Both the position numbers and the translations under genes were made by a program. The notes under the pieces are model-generated. The model had not been told where the DNA came from, searched no databases, and saw only the letters and a program-made list of their open reading frames with translations. Source: a virus. From it: a stretch of DNA of 61,410 nucleotides. Positions 6,059 to 51,689 of this stretch are shown here, one piece after another (position 1 is the stretch's first letter; every line of letters begins with the position of its first letter). The DNA lies in IMG/VR virus record IMGVR_UViG_3300021425_000037, positions 1-61,410 of that record. The stretch is one strand, 5' to 3'.

Positions 6059-6277
6059 ATGGAATTTTTTAGTGCAGATCAAAGTTGGTTATTTTTTGCT
6101 TATGCCGTAGGAACTCTATTTGGACTTTACTTTGGATATAATTATGCGGTTCGTGTAGTAACTGAAAAGATCATTGACAGTCTGATCGAAGCAAAAATGT
6201 TGAAGACTGAAGGGCATGGCGATAACATGGAAATTATTCCTTGGACAGAGTGGTGCAATGATCAAACTTCAAAATAA
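6059..6277 (+). CDS. Small single-pass membrane protein
   Basis: The product has 72 residues. One hydrophobic segment near residues 9-28 (LFFAYAVGTLFGLYFGYNYAV) is followed by a charged cytoplasmic-type tail. The last 20 bases overlap the chosen start of the TilS-like gene. Function unknown. Confidence 0.65.
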   Translation: MEFFSADQSWLFFAYAVGTLFGLYFGYNYAVRVVTEKIIDSLIEAKMLKTEGHGDNMEIIPWTEWCNDQTSK

Positions 6278-6869
6278 ACTGCCTTACTACTTGCATGTAG
6301 CATGTTCGGGTGGTGTTGATAGCATGGCCGCTTTAGACTTTTTGTCTAATAACCATCATACTAATATTTTGTTTTTCGATCACCAAACTGAAACTAGCAA
6401 ACAAGCATACAAGTTTGTTGCTTATTATGTTGGTGAAAACAAATTAGGTATTGTATATGGTAAGCCTCGCCATGCAAAAGAGAAGAGTCAAAGTTGGGAG
6501 GAGTATTGGCGCACCGAACGATATCATTTCTTTCATAGCGTAGATGCTCCTGTTGTAACAGCACATCATTTAGATGATTGTGTGGAAACTTGGTTATGGA
6601 GTAGTATGCATGGAAAAGGGAAAATTATTCCTTATCGCAATCGTAATGTTGTGCGTCCTTTTCGCCTTACCCGCAAACGGGATTTAGAACTTTGGTGTAA
6701 TCTTAGAAATGTACCATATATTGAAGATGAGTCTAATGAAGATACACGTTATATGCGTAACTATATTAGACATGAAATGATGCCACATGCACTTCGTGTA
6801 AATCCTGGCATTCATAAAACTATAATGAAGAAGGTAAGAGATGAACATACAACACCAATCACTGTTTGA
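6258..6869 (+). CDS. tilS: TilS-like tRNA(Ile)-lysidine synthetase, catalytic domain only
   Basis: The product has 203 residues. SGGVDS (residues 17-22) is the PP-loop ATP-binding motif of N-type ATP pyrophosphatases. HHLDDCVET and the DESNEDTRYMRNYIRH segment are the TilS signature. TilS converts C34 of the tRNA-Ile CAU anticodon to lysidine, changing it from Met to Ile decoding. Bacterial TilS is usually 300-450 residues; this one ends after the catalytic domain and lacks the C-terminal tRNA-binding domains. The in-frame ATG at 6258 places the PP-loop at the usual distance; an upstream ATG at 6216 lies inside the preceding gene. No tRNA-Ile(CAT) is in this window. Confidence 0.85.
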   Translation: MIKLQNKLPYYLHVACSGGVDSMAALDFLSNNHHTNILFFDHQTETSKQAYKFVAYYVGENKLGIVYGKPRHAKEKSQSWEEYWRTERYHFFHSVDAPVVTAHHLDDCVETWLWSSMHGKGKIIPYRNRNVVRPFRLTRKRDLELWCNLRNVPYIEDESNEDTRYMRNYIRHEMMPHALRVNPGIHKTIMKKVRDEHTTPITV

Positions 6870-9630: not shown

Positions 9631-10248
9631 ATGCCTTTGATCCCTATGGTTGTTGAACAAGAAAGCAGAGGAGAGCGTTCATACGATATCTATTCACGTT
9701 TGATGAAAGATCGTATCATTATGTTAAATGGTCCGGTTGAAGATAACATGGCTAATCTTGTTGTAGCACAAATGTTATATTTGGAAAGTGAAAATCCTGA
9801 TAAAACTATCAACTTGTATATTAACTCACCCGGTGGTGCTGTAACAGCAGGACTTGCTATCTATGACACAATGCAATACATCAAGTGTGATGTAAAAACT
9901 ATTGTAATGGGTCAAGCATGTTCAATGGGTAGTTTCCTTGCACAAGCAGGTACAGCAGGTAAGCGTATTGTATTACCTGAGTCACGTACAATGATTCACA
10001 GAGTTAGTTCGGGTACACCAGGTACAAGCGGCTCAGTACATATTCAGGAACTACAGATTGAAGATATCAATCGTCATTATGAAGAGTCGCAAAAAGTTAA
10101 TAAACGTTTAACTGAATTGTATGTAAAACATAATACAGCAGGAAAAACATATGAAGAACTATTCGAAACAATGAAGTTTGATACGTTCTTAACAGCAGAA
10201 GAAGCAGTTGAAAACGGCTTTGCCGATAAAGTAGTGGAGAGTAGATAA
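9631..10248 (+). CDS. clpP: ClpP-type serine peptidase
   Basis: The product has 205 residues, the full length of a bacterial ClpP without propeptide. The catalytic triad is visible: Ser98 in GQACSMGSF, His123 in TMIHRV and Asp184 in [23 protein letters not shown] is the conserved handle preceding the active site. ClpP forms a tetradecameric chamber fed by Clp ATPases; no ClpX or ClpA is seen here, so it would use host unfoldases or have a phage-specific role. Translation is coupled to the small membrane gene that follows (TAATG). Confidence 0.93.
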
Positions 10249-10837: not shown

Positions 10838-10912
10838 GGCCCGTTCGTCTAGTGGTTAGGACACATGGTTTTCATCCATGCAACAGGAGTTCGATTCTCC
10901 TACGGGCTACCA
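10838..10912 (+). tRNA. tRNA-Glu (anticodon TTC)
   Basis: GGCCCGT pairs with ACGGGCT, the anticodon stem CATGG/CCATG closes the loop TTTTCAT (TTC), the T-loop is TTCGATT, and CCA is encoded. Confidence 0.93.
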
Positions 10913-10915
10913 GGT

Positions 10916-10969
10916 TACACTCTGCAAGAAGCATAGCAACTTGCACTAGACTGATAAACTAGGAGTGTA
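10916..10969 (+). ncRNA. Compact three-way-junction RNA inside the tRNA cluster
   Basis: The 60-base gap between tRNA-Glu and tRNA-Ser folds with no unpaired base at the junction. P1 is 7 bp (10916-10922 with 10963-10969, TACACTC/GAGTGTA). P2 is 6 bp (10923-10928 with 10940-10945, TGCAAG/CTTGCA) with an 11-base loop. P3 is 4 bp (10946-10949 with 10959-10962, CTAG/CTAG) with a 9-base loop. Three bases separate it from each tRNA. T4 is known to carry two stable non-tRNA RNAs (C and D) in its tRNA cluster, a positional parallel. It is not a normal tRNA: there is no T-loop and no CCA. It could be a stable RNA, a degenerate tRNA or a processing spacer. Confidence 0.6.
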
Positions 10970-10972
10970 TTC

Positions 10973-11062
10973 GGAGAGTTGGCTGAGTGGTCGAAAGCGC
11001 CTCCCTGCTAAGGAGGTATACGGGCAACTGTATCGAGGGTTCGAATCCCTCACTCTCCGCCA
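10973..11062 (+). tRNA. tRNA-Ser (anticodon GCT)
   Basis: GGAGAGT pairs with ACTCTCC, the anticodon loop CTGCTAA reads GCT, and a long variable arm typical of tRNA-Ser follows. The T-loop is TTCGAAT and CCA is encoded. It is 90 bases long. Confidence 0.95.
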
Positions 11063-11103: not shown

Positions 11104-11424
11104 ATGAAAAGATTAGCAATCGCACTAGTTCTACTAGCAAGTACAGCAAACGCTACAGCAGACGATAGGTTTGAATCTATCCAAAGAGTATGGCCTACCT
11201 GTGCCGCATGTCACGGAGCTCAAGGTCAAGGTGTAGGAAGCATGCCCGCATTAGCAGGTAAAGATGCAGACTACATTATCAACGCATTACTTCAGTACAA
11301 AAACAAAGAACAACGTGGTCCATTAAGTTCATTAATGTGGCAACAGGCTTCTATGTTAACTGAAAGTCAAATTGGTGTTATTGGTGTTTATGTTCAAGAA
11401 ACACTTGACACACCATCCAATTGA
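11104..11424 (+). CDS. Secreted class I c-type cytochrome
   Basis: The product has 106 residues. Residues 1-17 are a signal peptide (basic MKR, hydrophobic ALVLLAS, cleavage after ANA). CAACH at residues 33-37 is the CxxCH covalent haem site, followed by GAQGQG and the LAGK of c553/c4-like monohaem cytochromes. The axial Met is probably in SSLMWQQASMLTESQI. It would be exported by Sec, haem-loaded by the host Ccm machinery, and carry electrons in the periplasm. It lies between tRNA genes; AAGGAA upstream gives a ribosome site. The 3' end holds a consensus promoter. Confidence 0.88.
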   Translation: MKRLAIALVLLASTANATADDRFESIQRVWPTCAACHGAQGQGVGSMPALAGKDADYIINALLQYKNKEQRGPLSSLMWQQASMLTESQIGVIGVYVQETLDTPSN

Positions 11425-12781: not shown

Positions 12782-13288
12782 ATGACATTAGTAGATAAAG
12801 CAAAATTATTCGCTACTGCGGCGCATGGTGCTATTGGTCAAGTCCGCAAATACACTGGCGAACCATACGTTACACACCCAATCCGTGTTATGAATCTTGT
12901 AAGCACCGTTATTAAAGACGAGAAAGTCTTAGCGGCTGCATTGTTACACGATGTCATTGAAGATACAGCAATCACCAAAGAAGACATTGCGTTAGAATTT
13001 GGTGTTGATGTTGCTGATATGGTTGTTGCATTAAGTGACCCGCCGAAAGTAGAAGGTGGTCCAAACCGTAAAGCACGTAAAGCAATGGACCGTGATAGGT
13101 TGAGCAAGGCAAGTGCAAGTGTACAAACTGTAAAAGTTGCAGACATGATCGACAACACTGAAAGTATTGTTGCACATGATCCTAAATTTTCAAAAGTATA
13201 CTTAGAAGAAAAGCGTTTGTTATTACAAGTGTTAACAAAAGCAGATGCTGGTCTTGTTGAAATTGCAAAAAATCAGGTGTCAAGATGA
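12782..13288 (+). CDS. SpoT/MESH1-type HD-domain (p)ppGpp hydrolase-like protein
   Basis: The product has 168 residues. RKYTGEPYVTHP at 22-33, LLHDVIEDT at 54-62 and KVADMIDN near 120 are the three hallmark motifs of the RelA/SpoT HD hydrolase domain (metal-binding H, HD and D). There is no synthetase or TGS domain, as in small alarmone hydrolases (MESH1-type). These remove the 3' pyrophosphate of (p)ppGpp. Acting in the host cytoplasm it could suppress the stringent response during infection, alongside the MazG-like protein at 58086; that pairing is inference. Confidence 0.85.
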   Translation: MTLVDKAKLFATAAHGAIGQVRKYTGEPYVTHPIRVMNLVSTVIKDEKVLAAALLHDVIEDTAITKEDIALEFGVDVADMVVALSDPPKVEGGPNRKARKAMDRDRLSKASASVQTVKVADMIDNTESIVAHDPKFSKVYLEEKRLLLQVLTKADAGLVEIAKNQVSR

Positions 13289-20446: not shown

Positions 20447-20932
20447 ATGGCATTTTATAGTACAAAAACATACGGACATAACATTGGATTATCAGCAGTG
20501 TTCCGTCAACCTAAGGCAATGCATTCACATTGTCACCTACTACATGGATACAGTTTACAATTTAAATTTGTATTCGGATGTAGTGATCTAGATGAAAAAA
20601 ACTGGGCTGTCGACTTTGGCGGATTAAAGCCGTTAAAGGCTTGGCTAGAAGATAGTTTTGATCACAAGACAGCAATTGATATCAATGATCCGGAACTAGA
20701 AACTTTTAAAGCACTAGAAGAAAAAGGTCTAGCAGAAATTAGAACTTTTGATGGTGTTGGTTGTGAGAAGTTTGCATACCACGCATGGAAGTTTGCTGAT
20801 CAACTTATTAGAGAAATTAGCGACGGGCGTTGCTGGTGTGAAAGTGCAGAGTGTGCAGAACACGGTGCTAACTCGGCAATCTATACTCCATACACAACTC
20901 AAAAGATGTCGTTTGCCGATGGCAAAGATTGA
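20447..20932 (+). CDS. QueD/6-pyruvoyl-tetrahydropterin synthase-family protein
   Basis: The product has 161 residues. HSHCHLLHGYSLQF corresponds to the CxxxHGHxY motif, with the Cys at residue 29 and HGY in place of HGH. DHKTAI and EKFAYHAWKFADQL match the later family motifs. Canonical members turn dihydroneopterin triphosphate into carboxytetrahydropterin for queuosine or deazaguanine synthesis. The changed zinc ligands mean this may be a divergent subfamily. No queC, queE or folE is seen. The next gene overlaps by 14 bp. Confidence 0.7.
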   Translation: MAFYSTKTYGHNIGLSAVFRQPKAMHSHCHLLHGYSLQFKFVFGCSDLDEKNWAVDFGGLKPLKAWLEDSFDHKTAIDINDPELETFKALEEKGLAEIRTFDGVGCEKFAYHAWKFADQLIREISDGRCWCESAECAEHGANSAIYTPYTTQKMSFADGKD

Positions 20933-21728
20933 TAAGAGTCAATACACCAAAGAAGAGTGGTTAAGGATTAAGGCAGAACGCAGAGATGCAAAGGCCCAAA
21001 AACATTTAACCACTCTTCCACAAGACTATTATATTTTGTGTTTGAAACATGGCACAAAATATAGTCCTGACTATGTAAACAAGTTATACAACATGTGCAA
21101 GCGTCACTGTACGCTAGACTTTAAGTTTGCTTGTCTTACAGACGATCCAATGGGTTTAAACCCTGATATTCAAATATTAACTTTGCCCAGTGGCCTTGCT
21201 GGCTGGTGGTGTAAACCTTATATGTTTTCAAAAGATTTGCCTATCAAAGGCACTATACTTTACCTTGACTTAGACGTTGTTATAAGTGGCAACTTAGATA
21301 AACTTTTAACATGGCAACCTAATCATTGGTGTATCGTAAGAGACTACACAAGAGCAATGAGTCCAGGATATCAAAAGTATAACAGTAGTGTTGTTAAATT
21401 TAAAACAGGCGAACTAGACTTTGTATGGGACAAATATCAAAAAGACCCAAAGAGCTATCAAAAGTTATTCTTTGGTGACCAAGATTACTTGTATGATGTT
21501 ACATACAAAACAAAAGCGGCTATGTTGTATCCAGACAGTTGGACGCAGAGTTGGAAATGGGAAGTACGTAAAACTAAAGATTTTGCTCCCGGCGGAGTTA
21601 GAGGGAACAGAGTATTCAAAGAAATAGAAAATGTAGTTCCTAGAGTTGAATGTTGTGTGTGCGTTTTTCATGGAGATCCTAATCCAGAGAATTGCCAAGA
21701 TCCATGGGTGGTAGAAAATTGGAAATAA
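20919..21728 (+). CDS. Glycosyltransferase-like protein with DxD motif
   Basis: The product has 269 residues from ATG 20919 (MAKIDKSQYTKEEW); the longer upstream frame lies inside the QueD gene. After a charged helix come YYILCLKHGTKYSP, FACLTDDP and ILYLDLDVVISGNLDKLL, the last giving the DxD-type metal/nucleotide-sugar motif of GT-A/GT8-like enzymes. GDQDYLY is the usual acceptor-side motif. Donor and acceptor are unknown. Confidence 0.7.
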   Translation: MAKIDKSQYTKEEWLRIKAERRDAKAQKHLTTLPQDYYILCLKHGTKYSPDYVNKLYNMCKRHCTLDFKFACLTDDPMGLNPDIQILTLPSGLAGWWCKPYMFSKDLPIKGTILYLDLDVVISGNLDKLLTWQPNHWCIVRDYTRAMSPGYQKYNSSVVKFKTGELDFVWDKYQKDPKSYQKLFFGDQDYLYDVTYKTKAAMLYPDSWTQSWKWEVRKTKDFAPGGVRGNRVFKEIENVVPRVECCVCVFHGDPNPENCQDPWVVENWK

Positions 21729-22432
21729 AAAAGCATTTTATATTTGACGTTGACGGAACACTTACCCCTAGTCGTAGAAAAATAGATGACGACTTTGCTG
21801 TGTTCTTTTCAGACTTTTGTACAAACAATCTTGTGTATCTTGTTACAGGTAGCGACAAAGAAAAAACAATAGAACAAATTGGTGAGGAAATATACAGTCT
21901 ATGTCAACGTGTATACAACTGTTCAGGCTGTGATGTTTGGGAAGGCGAGATTAACGTAAGATCAAAAAAATGGTCTTTACCAGATGAAGCAAGACAATGG
22001 TTGCGTAAAGAAATACAAGCATCAGAGTTCTGTTTACGTACAGGCAATCATATCGAAGAAAGAGCTGGTATGGTTAACTTTAGTATTGTAGGACGTAATG
22101 CTACACTAGGAGAGCGTAAACTGTATGTAGAGTTTGATACAGCCAACGACGAACGTAACCGCATTGCAAGAGATTTTAATCTACAGTTTCCTATTATGGA
22201 AGCAAAACCCGGAGGAGAAACAGGAATTGATATATCTCCAAAAGGTTGGGACAAGAGTCAAATACTTGTAGACTTTGATCCAAAAGATGAATTACATTTC
22301 TTTGGTGATAGAATGGACAAGGCAGGCAACGACTATCCTTTGAAAAGAGAAATCATTGACAAGGACTTAGGTATGTGTTATAATATTAAACATTACAGAG
22401 ACACTTGGAAGATATTAGATGAACTCACATAG
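21704..22432 (+). CDS. Eukaryotic-type phosphomannomutase-like HAD protein
   Basis: The product has 242 residues. FDVDGTLTPSR holds the HAD nucleophile Asp and acid/base Asp. NFSIVGRNAT, then GGETGIDISPKGWDKSQ and HFFGDRMDKAGNDYP, reproduce the order of eukaryotic PMM1/PMM2, which interconvert mannose 6-phosphate and mannose 1-phosphate. The ATG at 21704 overlaps the glycosyltransferase end by 25 bp. Bacteria normally use the unrelated ManB-type enzyme, so this gene is unusual. With the adjacent glycosyltransferase it suggests GDP-mannose-linked glycan building; that is inference. Confidence 0.75.
   Translation: MGGRKLEIKKHFIFDVDGTLTPSRRKIDDDFAVFFSDFCTNNLVYLVTGSDKEKTIEQIGEEIYSLCQRVYNCSGCDVWEGEINVRSKKWSLPDEARQWLRKEIQASEFCLRTGNHIEERAGMVNFSIVGRNATLGERKLYVEFDTANDERNRIARDFNLQFPIMEAKPGGETGIDISPKGWDKSQILVDFDPKDELHFFGDRMDKAGNDYPLKREIIDKDLGMCYNIKHYRDTWKILDELT
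22356..22384 (+). promoter_or_regulatory. Consensus sigma-70-type promoter with extended -10
   Basis: TTGACA (22356-22361), 17 bp, TATAAT (22379-22384) preceded by TGT. It lies inside the phosphomannomutase-like gene, 35 bp before uvsE. Confidence 0.8.
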
Positions 22433-23510
22433 TCGTATAGGTTTTGCATGCAAGTACATGTACCCAGACCAGACACAGAAAAAGAAATTACTTGAAGAAA
22501 TTCAACGACCGCTAAATACTCGTAGCACAACAGTACAGTGGCTTAATAGGCAGACACGTGATGTTGCTGAAGAACGCTTGTGGGACATCATGGTCCACAA
22601 CATTGCGTCTTACAAGAGGTTGATTGAATATGTGGGAAGTCTTCCACGTGAACTTAGAATGGTCCGATTGGGTAGCGATGTACTTCCTGTTTATACCCAG
22701 CATGAGTGGTCTTATTATTGGCGCAAGCCTGATGTGGTTTCGTACTGTGAAAAAGAATTTGCGAAAGTTGGCGAAACAGCAAGAGAACTTGATGTTCGAC
22801 TTTCCATGCACCCAGGCCAATTTACAGTCCTTGCTTCAGATAATGAAGAAATAGTAGAGAGGAGCATAGAAGAATTTGAATATCACACCGATGTCATACG
22901 CTGGATGGGATACGGCAAGACCTTCCAAGACTTCAAGTGCAATGTACACATCAGCGGCCGCAAAGGTCCAGCCGGTATTAAACATGTCGTCAACAACAGA
23001 CTTTCTCAAGAAGCGAGAAATACGATTACGATCGAAAATGACGAAAACAAATGGGGCATTGAACACTCACTTGAGCTCGTCGACACATGCGCTCTCGTAC
23101 TTGACATACACCACCACTGGTGCCGTGAAGGTGAATACATTAGACCCACCGACGCTAGATTTGCTCGTGTAATAGATTCGTGGCGTGGTGTACGTCCTGT
23201 GATACATTATTCATACAGCCGTGACGAACACTTGCCTGACGGCTTTGATCATTTCCTAAAGCCTAACATGGCAGAATTACTAGCAAATGGCTACAAGAAA
23301 GCAAAACTTAGAGCTCACAGCGATTACTATCCTAATCAGAGTTGTAACGATTGGGCATTGTCATTTTTGCCATATGCTGATATTATGTGTGAATCCAAGA
23401 TGAAGAACCTTGCTAGTATTGCCCTGCATAAATACAAAGAAGAAAAGGATCATTATGAGCTATTTAAACACAATGTACAGCAACAAGAGCCTGAGCTCGA
23501 AAGCACCTGA
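22419..23510 (+). CDS. uvsE: UV DNA damage endonuclease UvsE/UVDE
   Basis: The product has 363 residues. Family hallmarks along the TIM barrel are RIGFACKYM at the start, VRLGSDVLP, RLSMHPGQFTVL, ITIENDENKW, LDIHHHWC and a late KLRAHSDYYPN. These His, Glu and Asp residues hold the metal cluster. UVDE nicks 5' of UV photoproducts and starts excision repair, useful for a phage of sunlit water. The ATG overlaps the previous stop by 14 bp, and a promoter lies just upstream. Confidence 0.92.
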   Translation: MNSHSRIGFACKYMYPDQTQKKKLLEEIQRPLNTRSTTVQWLNRQTRDVAEERLWDIMVHNIASYKRLIEYVGSLPRELRMVRLGSDVLPVYTQHEWSYYWRKPDVVSYCEKEFAKVGETARELDVRLSMHPGQFTVLASDNEEIVERSIEEFEYHTDVIRWMGYGKTFQDFKCNVHISGRKGPAGIKHVVNNRLSQEARNTITIENDENKWGIEHSLELVDTCALVLDIHHHWCREGEYIRPTDARFARVIDSWRGVRPVIHYSYSRDEHLPDGFDHFLKPNMAELLANGYKKAKLRAHSDYYPNQSCNDWALSFLPYADIMCESKMKNLASIALHKYKEEKDHYELFKHNVQQQEPELEST

Positions 23511-24977: not shown

Positions 24978-24995
24978 TATTAAACAGGAGTATTG

Positions 24996-25370
24996 ATGTT
25001 CGTATTGACCTTAACGGAATCTGCTAAAAGCAAGGTAAATGAATTATGTAATGCACAGCCAGACATGTTTGCTGTACATTTAGGCTTGAAAGGAGGCGGC
25101 TGCGCAGGGTTCGAATACGAATGGGATATGATCAAAGCGGATAAAGTTGGAACTCACGACGAAATAATTAACACAGGCGAAGGAAATTTAGTAGTAAATG
25201 CAGAAAGCCTTATGTATTTGTTCGGTAGTGAGGTAGATTATTCGAGAGACGTATTTCAAACACAGTTTGTTATTAATAATCCTAATGCTCAAAGTGCATG
25301 CGGATGCGGAGTAAGTGTTAATTTTAATAACAACGTAGAAGAAAATATACAAATTTTGGAGCTAAAATAA
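24996..25370 (+). CDS. A-type Fe-S carrier (IscA/SufA/HesB family)
   Basis: The product has 124 residues. GGGCAGFEY (Cys36) and SACGCGVS (Cys102, Cys104) are the three cluster-binding Cys of the HesB/IscA/ErpA family, with normal spacing for the C-terminal CGCG pair. Such proteins carry Fe-S clusters or iron to apo-proteins. The ATG at 24996 has CAGGAG five bases upstream. Its place behind a late-type promoter, one base before a giant virion gene, suggests late expression. IscA-like genes are known in oceanic T4-like phages. Confidence 0.88.
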   Translation: MFVLTLTESAKSKVNELCNAQPDMFAVHLGLKGGGCAGFEYEWDMIKADKVGTHDEIINTGEGNLVVNAESLMYLFGSEVDYSRDVFQTQFVINNPNAQSACGCGVSVNFNNNVEENIQILELK

Positions 25371-49430: not shown

Positions 49431-51689
49431 TGCTAGTGCTTTATATACTGTTCCATTAAACGTAATAGGTATTGTTCTATCGAATGCTAGAGCATCGCCT
49501 AAACTTAGTTCTACACTATTAGCATTTTCTGCTACAAAGTCTCTTACTTTAAGTATAGCACTTGCATTGGTCATTTGAAGTCCAACAGTAGCACCTGTGC
49601 CGTCTGTTGTTCTAAGACCGTCTAAGGTACCTACAAATGGTGGTGCTGTGTTTAATGGTATAACACATGCTTCTTTGTCTTGAGTTGTGTCTGTAGGACA
49701 AATAACAACTGTAGTACCAGCAACCATATCATCACCTGGTTGTATAGGCTTGTTAAGCGTAACTGTATTATTAACATTATCAATAGCAATAATTCTTGTT
49801 AGTGTAGTACTATCGTCAGGATCAATTTCTTGTGTATAAGGTCTGCTTTGAAATACATTGTTTAATCCAAATCCTGATACATCGTTTAGTGTTAGTGTTG
49901 TGTCGCCAGGTACAGCAGTAACAGCAATTTCTTTACCTATAGTTCCTATACAAAAATTGTTAAGACTATTGTTTCTTAAACCCTTATCACTATAAAAATA
50001 TACCTGTTCCAATCCATTTAATCCTAATGGAATGTTTGTAGTAAATTCTCTAATACTTACAATACTTGTAACTCGTATGTAATCTGTTCCAGCAGGATTT
50101 GTTTCACTTACAACAACTGTACCTTCTTTAAGCCCTTCTGTTGTTGTTACGGTAACATTAAAGTTATTTGATGTGCCTGCTTGTACATCTAAAAATCCTC
50201 TGTGATCCATAAATTTAACAGGAACAGTAGCATCACCTGTTGCTGTTGAATCAACAATAATAATATTATTACGTGATATATCTGAAACACTTGTGCCTTT
50301 AACATAAGCAGGTGTAATAACTTTATTACCGATTTCAATGTTGTCTGTATATGGACTAGTTGACGTTGTACTCATTATATTACTATCTTGATTAAACGTT
50401 ACTGTATATTCTGCTCGTAAAGCATCAGCAAATCTCCTTGGAGGAGTATACGTTACAGTAAGTGGGCTAACACTTAACCATCTTGCGTATTGTGTACTAA
50501 AGTTAACATCTCTTGGTCCTATTTCACCGCCGCCTGTTAACAGTCTATTGTCGTAGAATCCTTTAAAACTATCTTCCTCAAACTCTTCCGGTATTTGTTG
50601 ATATAGATACCAATATGGCCAGTCGCCGCTATCTTTAATATTTGTAGTTAAGTTACAATCTATGAACTTGTTAAAATAATTCTTTGTAGGATCACTATAC
50701 CAATATGTTAAACGCATTTCCATAGGAACATATTTTTCTAAATTAGGTTCTGTATGAGAAAATCTAAATGCATCACTACCAATTTTATTTCTAATACTGT
50801 ATGTAAGTTTTGCACCTTCTGGAACGGTTATTGCTTGATTAAGAGTAATACTTGTAGCACCTGTGCCATCTACTAACAGTCCAGAACTAATTTCTGCTGA
50901 AAGTATTGCTACACCATTCTCGTCTTCTGCGGCAATAACTTCATCACCTATTACTACAGTACGAGCATCAAGTGCATCAACAGTAACGGTTGCTTCATTA
51001 TTCATTGCACTTAAATGTTCTATTTGACGATCTTCTGCAAATGTATTCTGTACAACTTGTAGATCGCCAAACTCGTCTGCTACTTCGAGCATAACAAGGC
51101 CAGTAGTTTCAAAACTAAATGTGCTTGGACCACTAGCATCTGGTACATAAAACCCAGTCCATTGAATAAGTCCGTTTGCTCCGCCTAATGTGTCGTCTAG
51201 TTTATTACTAAATTCAAATACCCCATTGTTCCAAAATTGTTTTGTAACTGCAGGTGTTTCACCTGATTTTATTATAGTGGCACCTGTAGTATTTTTACTT
51301 AACGTTTCGGTAATTTGTTCAACATCATAAAAAGTTGCTATCAATCCGTCACCACCATTAAAAAATGGGGGATCATTAGTTGTAGCAATAATAGTATCTA
51401 ACTGATTTTTAACAGTAATAACTGGTGAAGCAATTCTATCAACAAGTTCACCATCTTCTAACACAGTATTTTTTACAGCAAGTCCAGCCATTAATCCAAT
51501 ATCTCTGTTAGTTACTGTACTATTACTGATACCTTTAATGGCGTCTAAATCGCCGCCTGTAAATACTTTGTTATCAGAACCAACTACAAGGTTGTTTAGA
51601 ACGTTGTTCAGTGCCTGATCTTTTGATGTAAGATCTGATAGATTTAGGTCTCTACGTAGTCCTATGTTCTTAAATGAAGGTCTTGCCAT
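49419..51689 (-). CDS. Opposite-strand virion protein with PA14-like domain
   Basis: The product has 756 residues and is the only large minus-strand gene. N-terminal residues 1-90 (FKNIGLRRDLNLSDLTSKDQ, ALNNVLNNLVVG) form a probable attachment region. Residues about 113-195 (GLIATFYDVEQI, WTGFYVPDASGPSTFSFETT, VMLEVADEFGD) resemble PA14, a carbohydrate-binding beta barrel. The remainder is strand-rich. A GATAAATA box and GGAGT ribosome site lie directly before it on the minus strand, so it is probably late-expressed from its own promoter. Why it is inverted within a co-directional block is unclear. Confidence 0.7.
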   Translation of the reverse strand: MARPSFKNIGLRRDLNLSDLTSKDQALNNVLNNLVVGSDNKVFTGGDLDAIKGISNSTVTNRDIGLMAGLAVKNTVLEDGELVDRIASPVITVKNQLDTIIATTNDPPFFNGGDGLIATFYDVEQITETLSKNTTGATIIKSGETPAVTKQFWNNGVFEFSNKLDDTLGGANGLIQWTGFYVPDASGPSTFSFETTGLVMLEVADEFGDLQVVQNTFAEDRQIEHLSAMNNEATVTVDALDARTVVIGDEVIAAEDENGVAILSAEISSGLLVDGTGATSITLNQAITVPEGAKLTYSIRNKIGSDAFRFSHTEPNLEKYVPMEMRLTYWYSDPTKNYFNKFIDCNLTTNIKDSGDWPYWYLYQQIPEEFEEDSFKGFYDNRLLTGGGEIGPRDVNFSTQYARWLSVSPLTVTYTPPRRFADALRAEYTVTFNQDSNIMSTTSTSPYTDNIEIGNKVITPAYVKGTSVSDISRNNIIIVDSTATGDATVPVKFMDHRGFLDVQAGTSNNFNVTVTTTEGLKEGTVVVSETNPAGTDYIRVTSIVSIREFTTNIPLGLNGLEQVYFYSDKGLRNNSLNNFCIGTIGKEIAVTAVPGDTTLTLNDVSGFGLNNVFQSRPYTQEIDPDDSTTLTRIIAIDNVNNTVTLNKPIQPGDDMVAGTTVVICPTDTTQDKEACVIPLNTAPPFVGTLDGLRTTDGTGATVGLQMTNASAILKVRDFVAENANSVELSLGDALAFDRTIPITFNGTVYKALASTS

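What the first reader, a model, noticed from the sequence alone, without database searches (positions are those of the whole stretch)
10916..10969. Previously unnoticed three-way-junction RNA packed between tRNA-Glu and tRNA-Ser
The spacer folds into three contiguous helices (7, 6 and 4 bp) with no unpaired base at the junction and exactly three bases to each flanking tRNA. The outer helix has the length of a tRNA acceptor stem, but there is no T-arm, anticodon arm of normal length or CCA. T4 keeps stable RNAs C and D in its tRNA cluster, so this may be an equivalent stable RNA, a minimal tRNA-like decoy, or a processing element.
Basis: partly seen in the sequence, partly recalled or inferred. 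Interest (0 to 1): 0.8.

Follow-up and report, generated by a model that had tools for sequence, protein, structure and literature searches.

The report
Conserved phage RNA between tRNA genes
A 54-base stretch squeezed between two tRNA genes of an uncultured phage encodes a real, apparently undescribed folded RNA that evolution preserves base pair by base pair, and close relatives carry the same RNA module next to other tRNA genes or inside a split ribosome-rescue RNA (permuted tmRNA).

Summary
Window 10916-10969 folds into exactly the 7/6/4-bp three-way junction described. Homologues occur in more than 50 IMG/VR records. In 26 distinct sequences, 18 of 25 pairs show two-sided changes (91% of cells paired; shuffles 77%, slid controls at most 45%). 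A covariance model built without the window's whole subtype still finds it (52 bits, E about 2e-10). No Rfam family matches, and it is neither a tRNA nor related to T4 RNA C/D. P1 varies from 7 to about 13 bp, so its tRNA-acceptor length is accidental. Loop L3 (CUGAUAA) is invariant and L2 is a conserved AUA/GUA triloop. The same core sits before tRNA-Ser, before tRNA-Trp, next to manA RNA (divergent) and, unexpectedly, as the cap of the intervening sequence of phage permuted tmRNAs. The window's core is 97.5% identical over 40 nt to a tmRNA-resident copy. A tree needs about five moves between slots, and no record has two canonical copies. Best reading: a portable phage small RNA, freed by tRNA/tmRNA processing and acting through its loops. 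Main rival: a cis-acting processing clamp. No expression data exist, so function is inferred.

The parts
10838..10912 (+). tRNA-Glu(UUC), ends in encoded CCA
   Evidence: ARAGORN; Rfam
10916..10969 (+). three-way-junction RNA element (54 nt)
   Evidence: fold; held-out covariance model R2 52.2 bits; R1 62.5 bits
10916..10922 (+). P1 5' strand TACACTC
10923..10928 (+). P2 5' strand TGCAAG
10929..10939 (+). P2 apical part AAGCATAGCAA: tandem A.A mismatches, inner GC/GC pairs and conserved ATA triloop (10933-10935)
10940..10945 (+). P2 3' strand CTTGCA
10946..10949 (+). P3 5' strand CTAG
10950..10958 (+). L3 loop ACTGATAAA; CTGATAA invariant in the canonical family
10959..10962 (+). P3 3' strand CTAG
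10963..10969 (+). P1 3' strand GAGTGTA
10973..11062 (+). tRNA-Ser(GCU) directly downstream
   Evidence: ARAGORN; Rfam

Best explanation
The element is a portable phage small RNA of about 54-67 nt. It is co-transcribed with tRNAs or lies inside a pre-tmRNA, and is freed when tRNA-processing enzymes trim the CCA end before it and the 5' end after it. Stem P1 is a sequence-tolerant clamp. The working surface is the three-way-junction core with its conserved apical loops (L3 CUGAUAA, L2 AUA/GUA triloop), which would bind a protein or RNA partner in trans during infection. Shown: the structure, its covariation, the conserved loops, the several genomic slots, the near-identity of cores between slots, and no record with two canonical copies. 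Inferred: release, stability, trans action and the partner, which is unknown.
For: Covariation in all three helices with invariant L3 and a conserved triloop whose closing pair varies U-G/C-G/U-A. G-U pairs (columns 9-65 and 26-30) fit RNA on the tRNA strand; the reverse strand scores about 22 against 88 bits. Same core in tRNA-Ser, tRNA-Trp and permuted-tmRNA slots; 40-nt core 97.5% identical between window and tmRNA-resident L185, and 37/37 between L162 (tmRNA) and L150 (tRNA-Trp). About 5 slot changes on the tree, 3-4 forced by well-supported branches. The tmRNA slot accepts many unrelated caps, so the tmRNA slot does not by itself demand this cap. tRNA-Asn/Ser pairs exist 3-7 nt apart without it. 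One canonical copy in each of 53 fetched records plus the window. G006, G010, G018 and G030 have it in a tRNA slot and something else or a degenerate copy in their tmRNA; G012 has it in the tmRNA and none before tRNA-Ser.
Against: No RNA-seq or Northern data. Most records are fragments and several are near-duplicates, so 'one copy' is only suggestive. The canonical copies always sit at a tRNA/tmRNA processing boundary, which a cis-acting element would also predict. Conserved loops could serve folding only.
Confidence: 0.45

Rival explanations
1. Cis-acting maturation cassette: the clamp and junction hold the 3' CCA end and the next 5' end apart or together, so that RNase P and a 3' endonuclease (possibly RNase III on the P1/P2 helix) cut correctly; the excised piece is waste.
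For: In phage permuted tmRNAs P1 continues from the CCA and nearly meets the acceptor stem, and clamps of this kind cap almost all phage permuted tmRNA intervening sequences, including isolates Melnitz, DSS3P8, RcXuper and MD18. The tRNA-slot copies lie 3-5 nt after CCA and close to the next tRNA.
Against: Clamps work with unrelated caps, so loop conservation is unexplained. Relatives mature the same tRNA-Ser without it (inferred). Divergent copies beside manA RNA have a P1 of only 3-4 bp and lie 91-331 nt from the next tRNA.
Confidence: 0.33
2. Selfish or passively recombining RNA-coding module: it spreads between tRNA-flanked sites by recombination and has little function of its own.
For: Repeated slot changes; P2 can be replaced while P3/L3 stays 20/20 identical (L259/L279 against L075).
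Against: Strong compensatory evolution and invariant loops imply selection on the RNA; no record has two canonical copies.
Confidence: 0.1
3. Regulatory element such as a riboswitch or attenuator that controls the downstream tRNA.
For: Compact three-way junction with conserved loops; manA RNA, a candidate regulator, is a neighbour in some phages.
Against: No terminator or alternative pairing seen; copies inside tmRNA intervening sequences follow half of the gene and so cannot act as leaders; no protein gene directly downstream in the contexts examined.
Confidence: 0.06
4. Degenerate tRNA or tRNA-like decoy.
For: The window P1 happens to be 7 bp.
Against: P1 length varies; no T-arm, anticodon arm or CCA; no RF00005 match.
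Confidence: 0.02

Closest known systems
T4 stable RNAs C and D (species 1 and 2 RNA)
   Same: Non-tRNA structured RNAs inside a phage tRNA cluster
   Different: 139 and 119 nt, different predicted folds and no covariance-model match
Intervening sequence of permuted (two-piece) tmRNA, RF04321/RF01849
   Same: Phage copies of this element occupy exactly this segment
   Different: Rfam models leave the segment unstructured; this cap also lives outside tmRNA, in tRNA spacers
GOLLD and ROOL RNAs
   Same: Phage RNAs near tRNA islands, function unknown (PMC12286853)
   Different: Hundreds of nt long and form nanocages; no sequence match here; GOLLD occurs separately in L159
manA RNA (RF01745)
   Same: Phage/marine structured RNA, found here within tRNA clusters; divergent copies of the element adjoin it
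   Different: About 190 nt candidate cis-regulator; canonical copies of the element have no manA match
tRNA-spacer regulatory RNAs of E. coli (3'ETS-leuZ type; Lalaouna 2015, cited in PMC5286369)
   Same: A tRNA-transcript spacer with a trans role
   Different: Acts by base-pairing with host sRNAs; no such target was sought or found here

Membership tests
tRNA (RF00005) | cloverleaf with T-arm, anticodon arm, 7-bp acceptor and CCA; covariance match | tested here: not met
   no RF00005 match at 10916-10969; P1 7 to about 13 bp in relatives
T4 RNA C/D | sequence/structure homology with rnaC or rnaD | tested here: not met
   model R1 best 11.4 bits in the T4 tRNA region; R2 no match in it at E<=1
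any family of Rfam 15 | covariance-model match | tested here: not met
   no match to the element at E<=5 in L001 and L003
intervening sequence of permuted tmRNA | lies between CCA of the acceptor piece and the 5' end of the coding piece of one tmRNA | tested here: not met
   the window copy lies between tRNA-Glu and tRNA-Ser and no tmRNA is found in the window; related copies do meet it
stable phage RNA | a discrete RNA accumulates in infected cells | not testable with these tools
   no expression data and no isolate carrying the element found
self-cleaving ribozyme | match to a known class or shown cleavage | tested here: inconclusive
   no known class matches; cleavage activity not testable
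GOLLD/ROOL/manA | Rfam covariance match | tested here: not met
   no match in the window

The most novel reading that the evidence does not exclude
A phage encodes a trans-acting small RNA that has no stand-alone gene but parks in interchangeable RNA-processing slots (tRNA spacers, or the intervening sequence of its permuted tmRNA), is released by the host tRNA-processing machinery, and blocks or recruits a host or phage protein (an RNase, ribosome-rescue or defence factor) through its CUGAUAA and AUA loops.
Probability: 0.3. Interest if true: 0.82.

Novelty: new variant of a known kind. Interest (0 to 1): 0.62.

Why it matters
Phage tRNA arrays are usually read as codon supplements. Here an array carries an undescribed structured RNA family that also lives inside phage permuted tmRNAs, a segment that current models treat as unstructured loop. 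If it acts in trans, tRNA and tmRNA processing would double as an expression system for phage small RNAs. If it acts in cis, it would be a structured signal bearing on how two-piece tmRNA and polycistronic phage tRNAs are matured. Either way the covariance evidence makes it directly testable with a small construct.

Tried and rejected
Rfam at permissive E-value: only tRNA and chance matches. Homology to T4 RNAs C/D: none. Copies in bacterial or archaeal genomes: one pattern match, L203, folds differently and is chance. Copies in isolated phages: none by blastn. A second copy in the window at 50395-50458 scores 17.5-18.4 bits, lacks a recognisable L3 and is treated as chance. Pattern hits rejected after folding: L153, L158, L160, L168, L178, L182, L183, L187, L197, L199, L363, L369, L372. 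Considered: an L2-L3 kissing interaction; the loops show weak complementarity but no covariation supports it (L2 G-to-A in L068 with L3 unchanged). Stop codons UAG/UGA/UAA in the loops are not in a constant frame, so a translational role was dropped. Do other tmRNA caps shuttle into tRNA slots? None found, but the loci held were chosen partly for this element.

Full report
Setting. The window is a 61,410-base virus record. Around the finding lie a ClpP protease gene (9631-10248), tRNA-Trp, tRNA-Glu, the element, tRNA-Ser, a cytochrome c gene (11104-11424), then tRNA-Thr and tRNA-Ala. The closest isolate ClpP matches, about 65% identical, are from large Pseudomonas phages such as PA5oct.

Observation. 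The stretch 10916-10969 forms exactly the helices described, with zero unpaired junction bases and 3-nt spacers. By itself the fold is only moderately unusual (z = -2.84; 40 of 2000 shuffles as stable but none of those a closed three-way junction).

Relatives. Three neighbouring proteins were used to fetch IMG/VR loci and ARAGORN was run on all. Upstream of tRNA-Ser in many relatives is a 60-71-nt spacer with the same architecture although the preceding tRNA differs (Glu, Asn, Arg, or none). DNA-pattern scans of IMG/VR then found more copies.

Structure. The 26-sequence alignment A2 is nearly gap-free. Of 25 pairs, 18 have at least one two-sided change and 91.3% of cells pair, against 77.1% (sd 1.0) in 3'-letter shuffles and at most 44.5% when partners are slid. 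With a better P2 register and added sequences, 19 of 26 pairs have two-sided changes and 108 cells (shuffles 38, sd 5; none of 500 as high). The tool's caution applies that relatedness inflates the shuffle comparison; the slid controls do not share that weakness. Examples: P1 column 10-64 C-G 17 / U-A 13; P2 column 20-36 A-U 14 / U-A 16; P3 41-56 C-G 26 / U-A 4 and 42-55 A-U 27 / G-C 3. CUGAUAA in L3 is invariant, L2 is an AUA or GUA triloop closed by U-G, C-G or U-A. Model R2, trained without the window and the other members of its subtype, finds the window at 52.2 bits, E about 2e-10, and L067, L157 and L185 as well.

Not a known family. Rfam 15 gives no match at E up to 5. T4 RNAs C and D do not match.

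Contexts. (a) Before tRNA-Ser. (b) Before tRNA-Trp, after a terminator-like AGGGGCTTTTTTT, with no tRNA immediately upstream (L150, L151, L154, L190). (c) Between the CCA end and the 5' end of circularly permuted tmRNAs (L156, L157, L161, L162, L169, L179, L185 and others); Rfam confirms RF04321/RF01849/RF01850 over the element. (d) A divergent form with a 3-4-bp P1, directly after tRNA-Leu (L159, L190) or after a manA RNA (L202, 49.6 bits, E 9e-12, just under Rfam's cut-off; L171 by similarity). No canonical copy was found in an isolate phage or a species-representative genome with the searches made.

The tmRNA slot. In phage permuted tmRNAs nearly every intervening sequence begins and ends with a clamp that continues from the CCA (CCAUAAACAC.../...GUGUUUAUGAU before GGGG). 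Isolates Melnitz, DSS3P8, RcXuper and MD18 have clamps with other caps. In G006 the clamp encloses a small ORF. The three-way junction is thus one cap among many in tmRNA, yet the only one found also in tRNA spacers among the loci held.

Movement. The window's core (10925-10964) is 97.5% identical over 40 nt to the tmRNA cap of L185, and a tRNA-Trp copy (L150) matches a tmRNA cap (L162) over 37/37 nt. A tree of core columns needs 5 slot changes, of which starred branches force 3-4 per group. The tree rests on only 55 columns. The large records belong to one phage group by ClpP (68-95% identical to the window's), so this is movement among relatives. G012, 95% identical in ClpP to the window, carries the module in its tmRNA rather than before tRNA-Ser.

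Copy number. In 53 fetched records with a canonical match, plus the window, none has two canonical copies. G010 has a canonical copy before tRNA-Ser and a degenerate junction (33 bits) in its tmRNA; G074 has a canonical and a manA-type copy. G006, G018 and G030 have the canonical copy in a tRNA slot and another insert in the tmRNA. Most records are fragments, so this is suggestive only.

Mechanism. A cap that is conserved in its loops, is not required by either slot, and relocates as a unit is best explained as a functional RNA whose slot merely provides transcription and release. Shown: structure, conservation, slots, movement. Inferred: release by RNase P and a 3' nuclease, stability, trans action. 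The partner is unknown. The chief rival is a cis-acting maturation cassette, favoured by the constant adjacency of canonical copies to tRNA/tmRNA ends and by the universality of the clamp in tmRNA. Confidence 0.45 against 0.33.

Novelty. Phage structured RNAs in tRNA arrays are a known kind (T4 RNA C/D, GOLLD, ROOL; PMC12286853). Phage two-piece tmRNAs are known (PMC9004378, PMC11915505), and the retrieved passages of those papers do not describe a structured cap or a shared module. The family, its loop consensus and its residence in both tRNA spacers and tmRNA intervening sequences appear new, within a literature search limited to open PMC text.

Noticed in passing
L190, minus strand, about positions 438-492 of the segment printed: GGGGCUCUGG...AGAGAAGUUCAACUCUUUUCGGCUCCACCA resembles a tmRNA-type tRNA-like domain without any coding part, close to tRNA-Gln in a phage.
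   Followed up: no
L245 (G006:C1:72600-73250, minus strand): The intervening sequence of this phage permuted tmRNA encloses an ORF of about 42 aa (MALIWTGIQYTSLAALLG...) inside the clamp stem; Melnitz (L376) may have an ORF there too.
   Followed up: partly
L251-L362 (phage permuted tmRNA loci): At least a few other recurrent cap types exist in phage permuted tmRNA intervening sequences (for example AUGAGAUAUUGAAUCACUGC and GGUCGCCAUAGUCGGAACAAAUAUGG), possibly further RNA families.
   Followed up: partly
L202:6364-6572 (-); L171 by similarity: A manA RNA below Rfam's cut-off (49.6 bits, E 9e-12) between tRNA-Leu and a divergent copy of the element; the DNA downstream (AAGGGUUUUGUUCCCCUUGUAAAAC...) is conserved too and may extend the RNA.
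   Followed up: partly
L159:5966-6425 (-): GOLLD RNA (185.9 bits) in the tRNA cluster of a related phage record.
   Followed up: no
L077:6419-6488: A different 70-nt structured spacer occupies the tRNA-Asn/tRNA-Ser slot in this relative.
   Followed up: no
window 6216-6869, 12782-13288, 20447-20932, 21692-22432, 22419-23510, 24993-25370: Metabolic or accessory genes in this phage: PP-loop (TilS-like) protein, HD-domain (SpoT-like) hydrolase, PTPS/QueD-like, phosphomannomutase-like, UvdE UV endonuclease and an Fe-S cluster assembly protein.
   Followed up: partly
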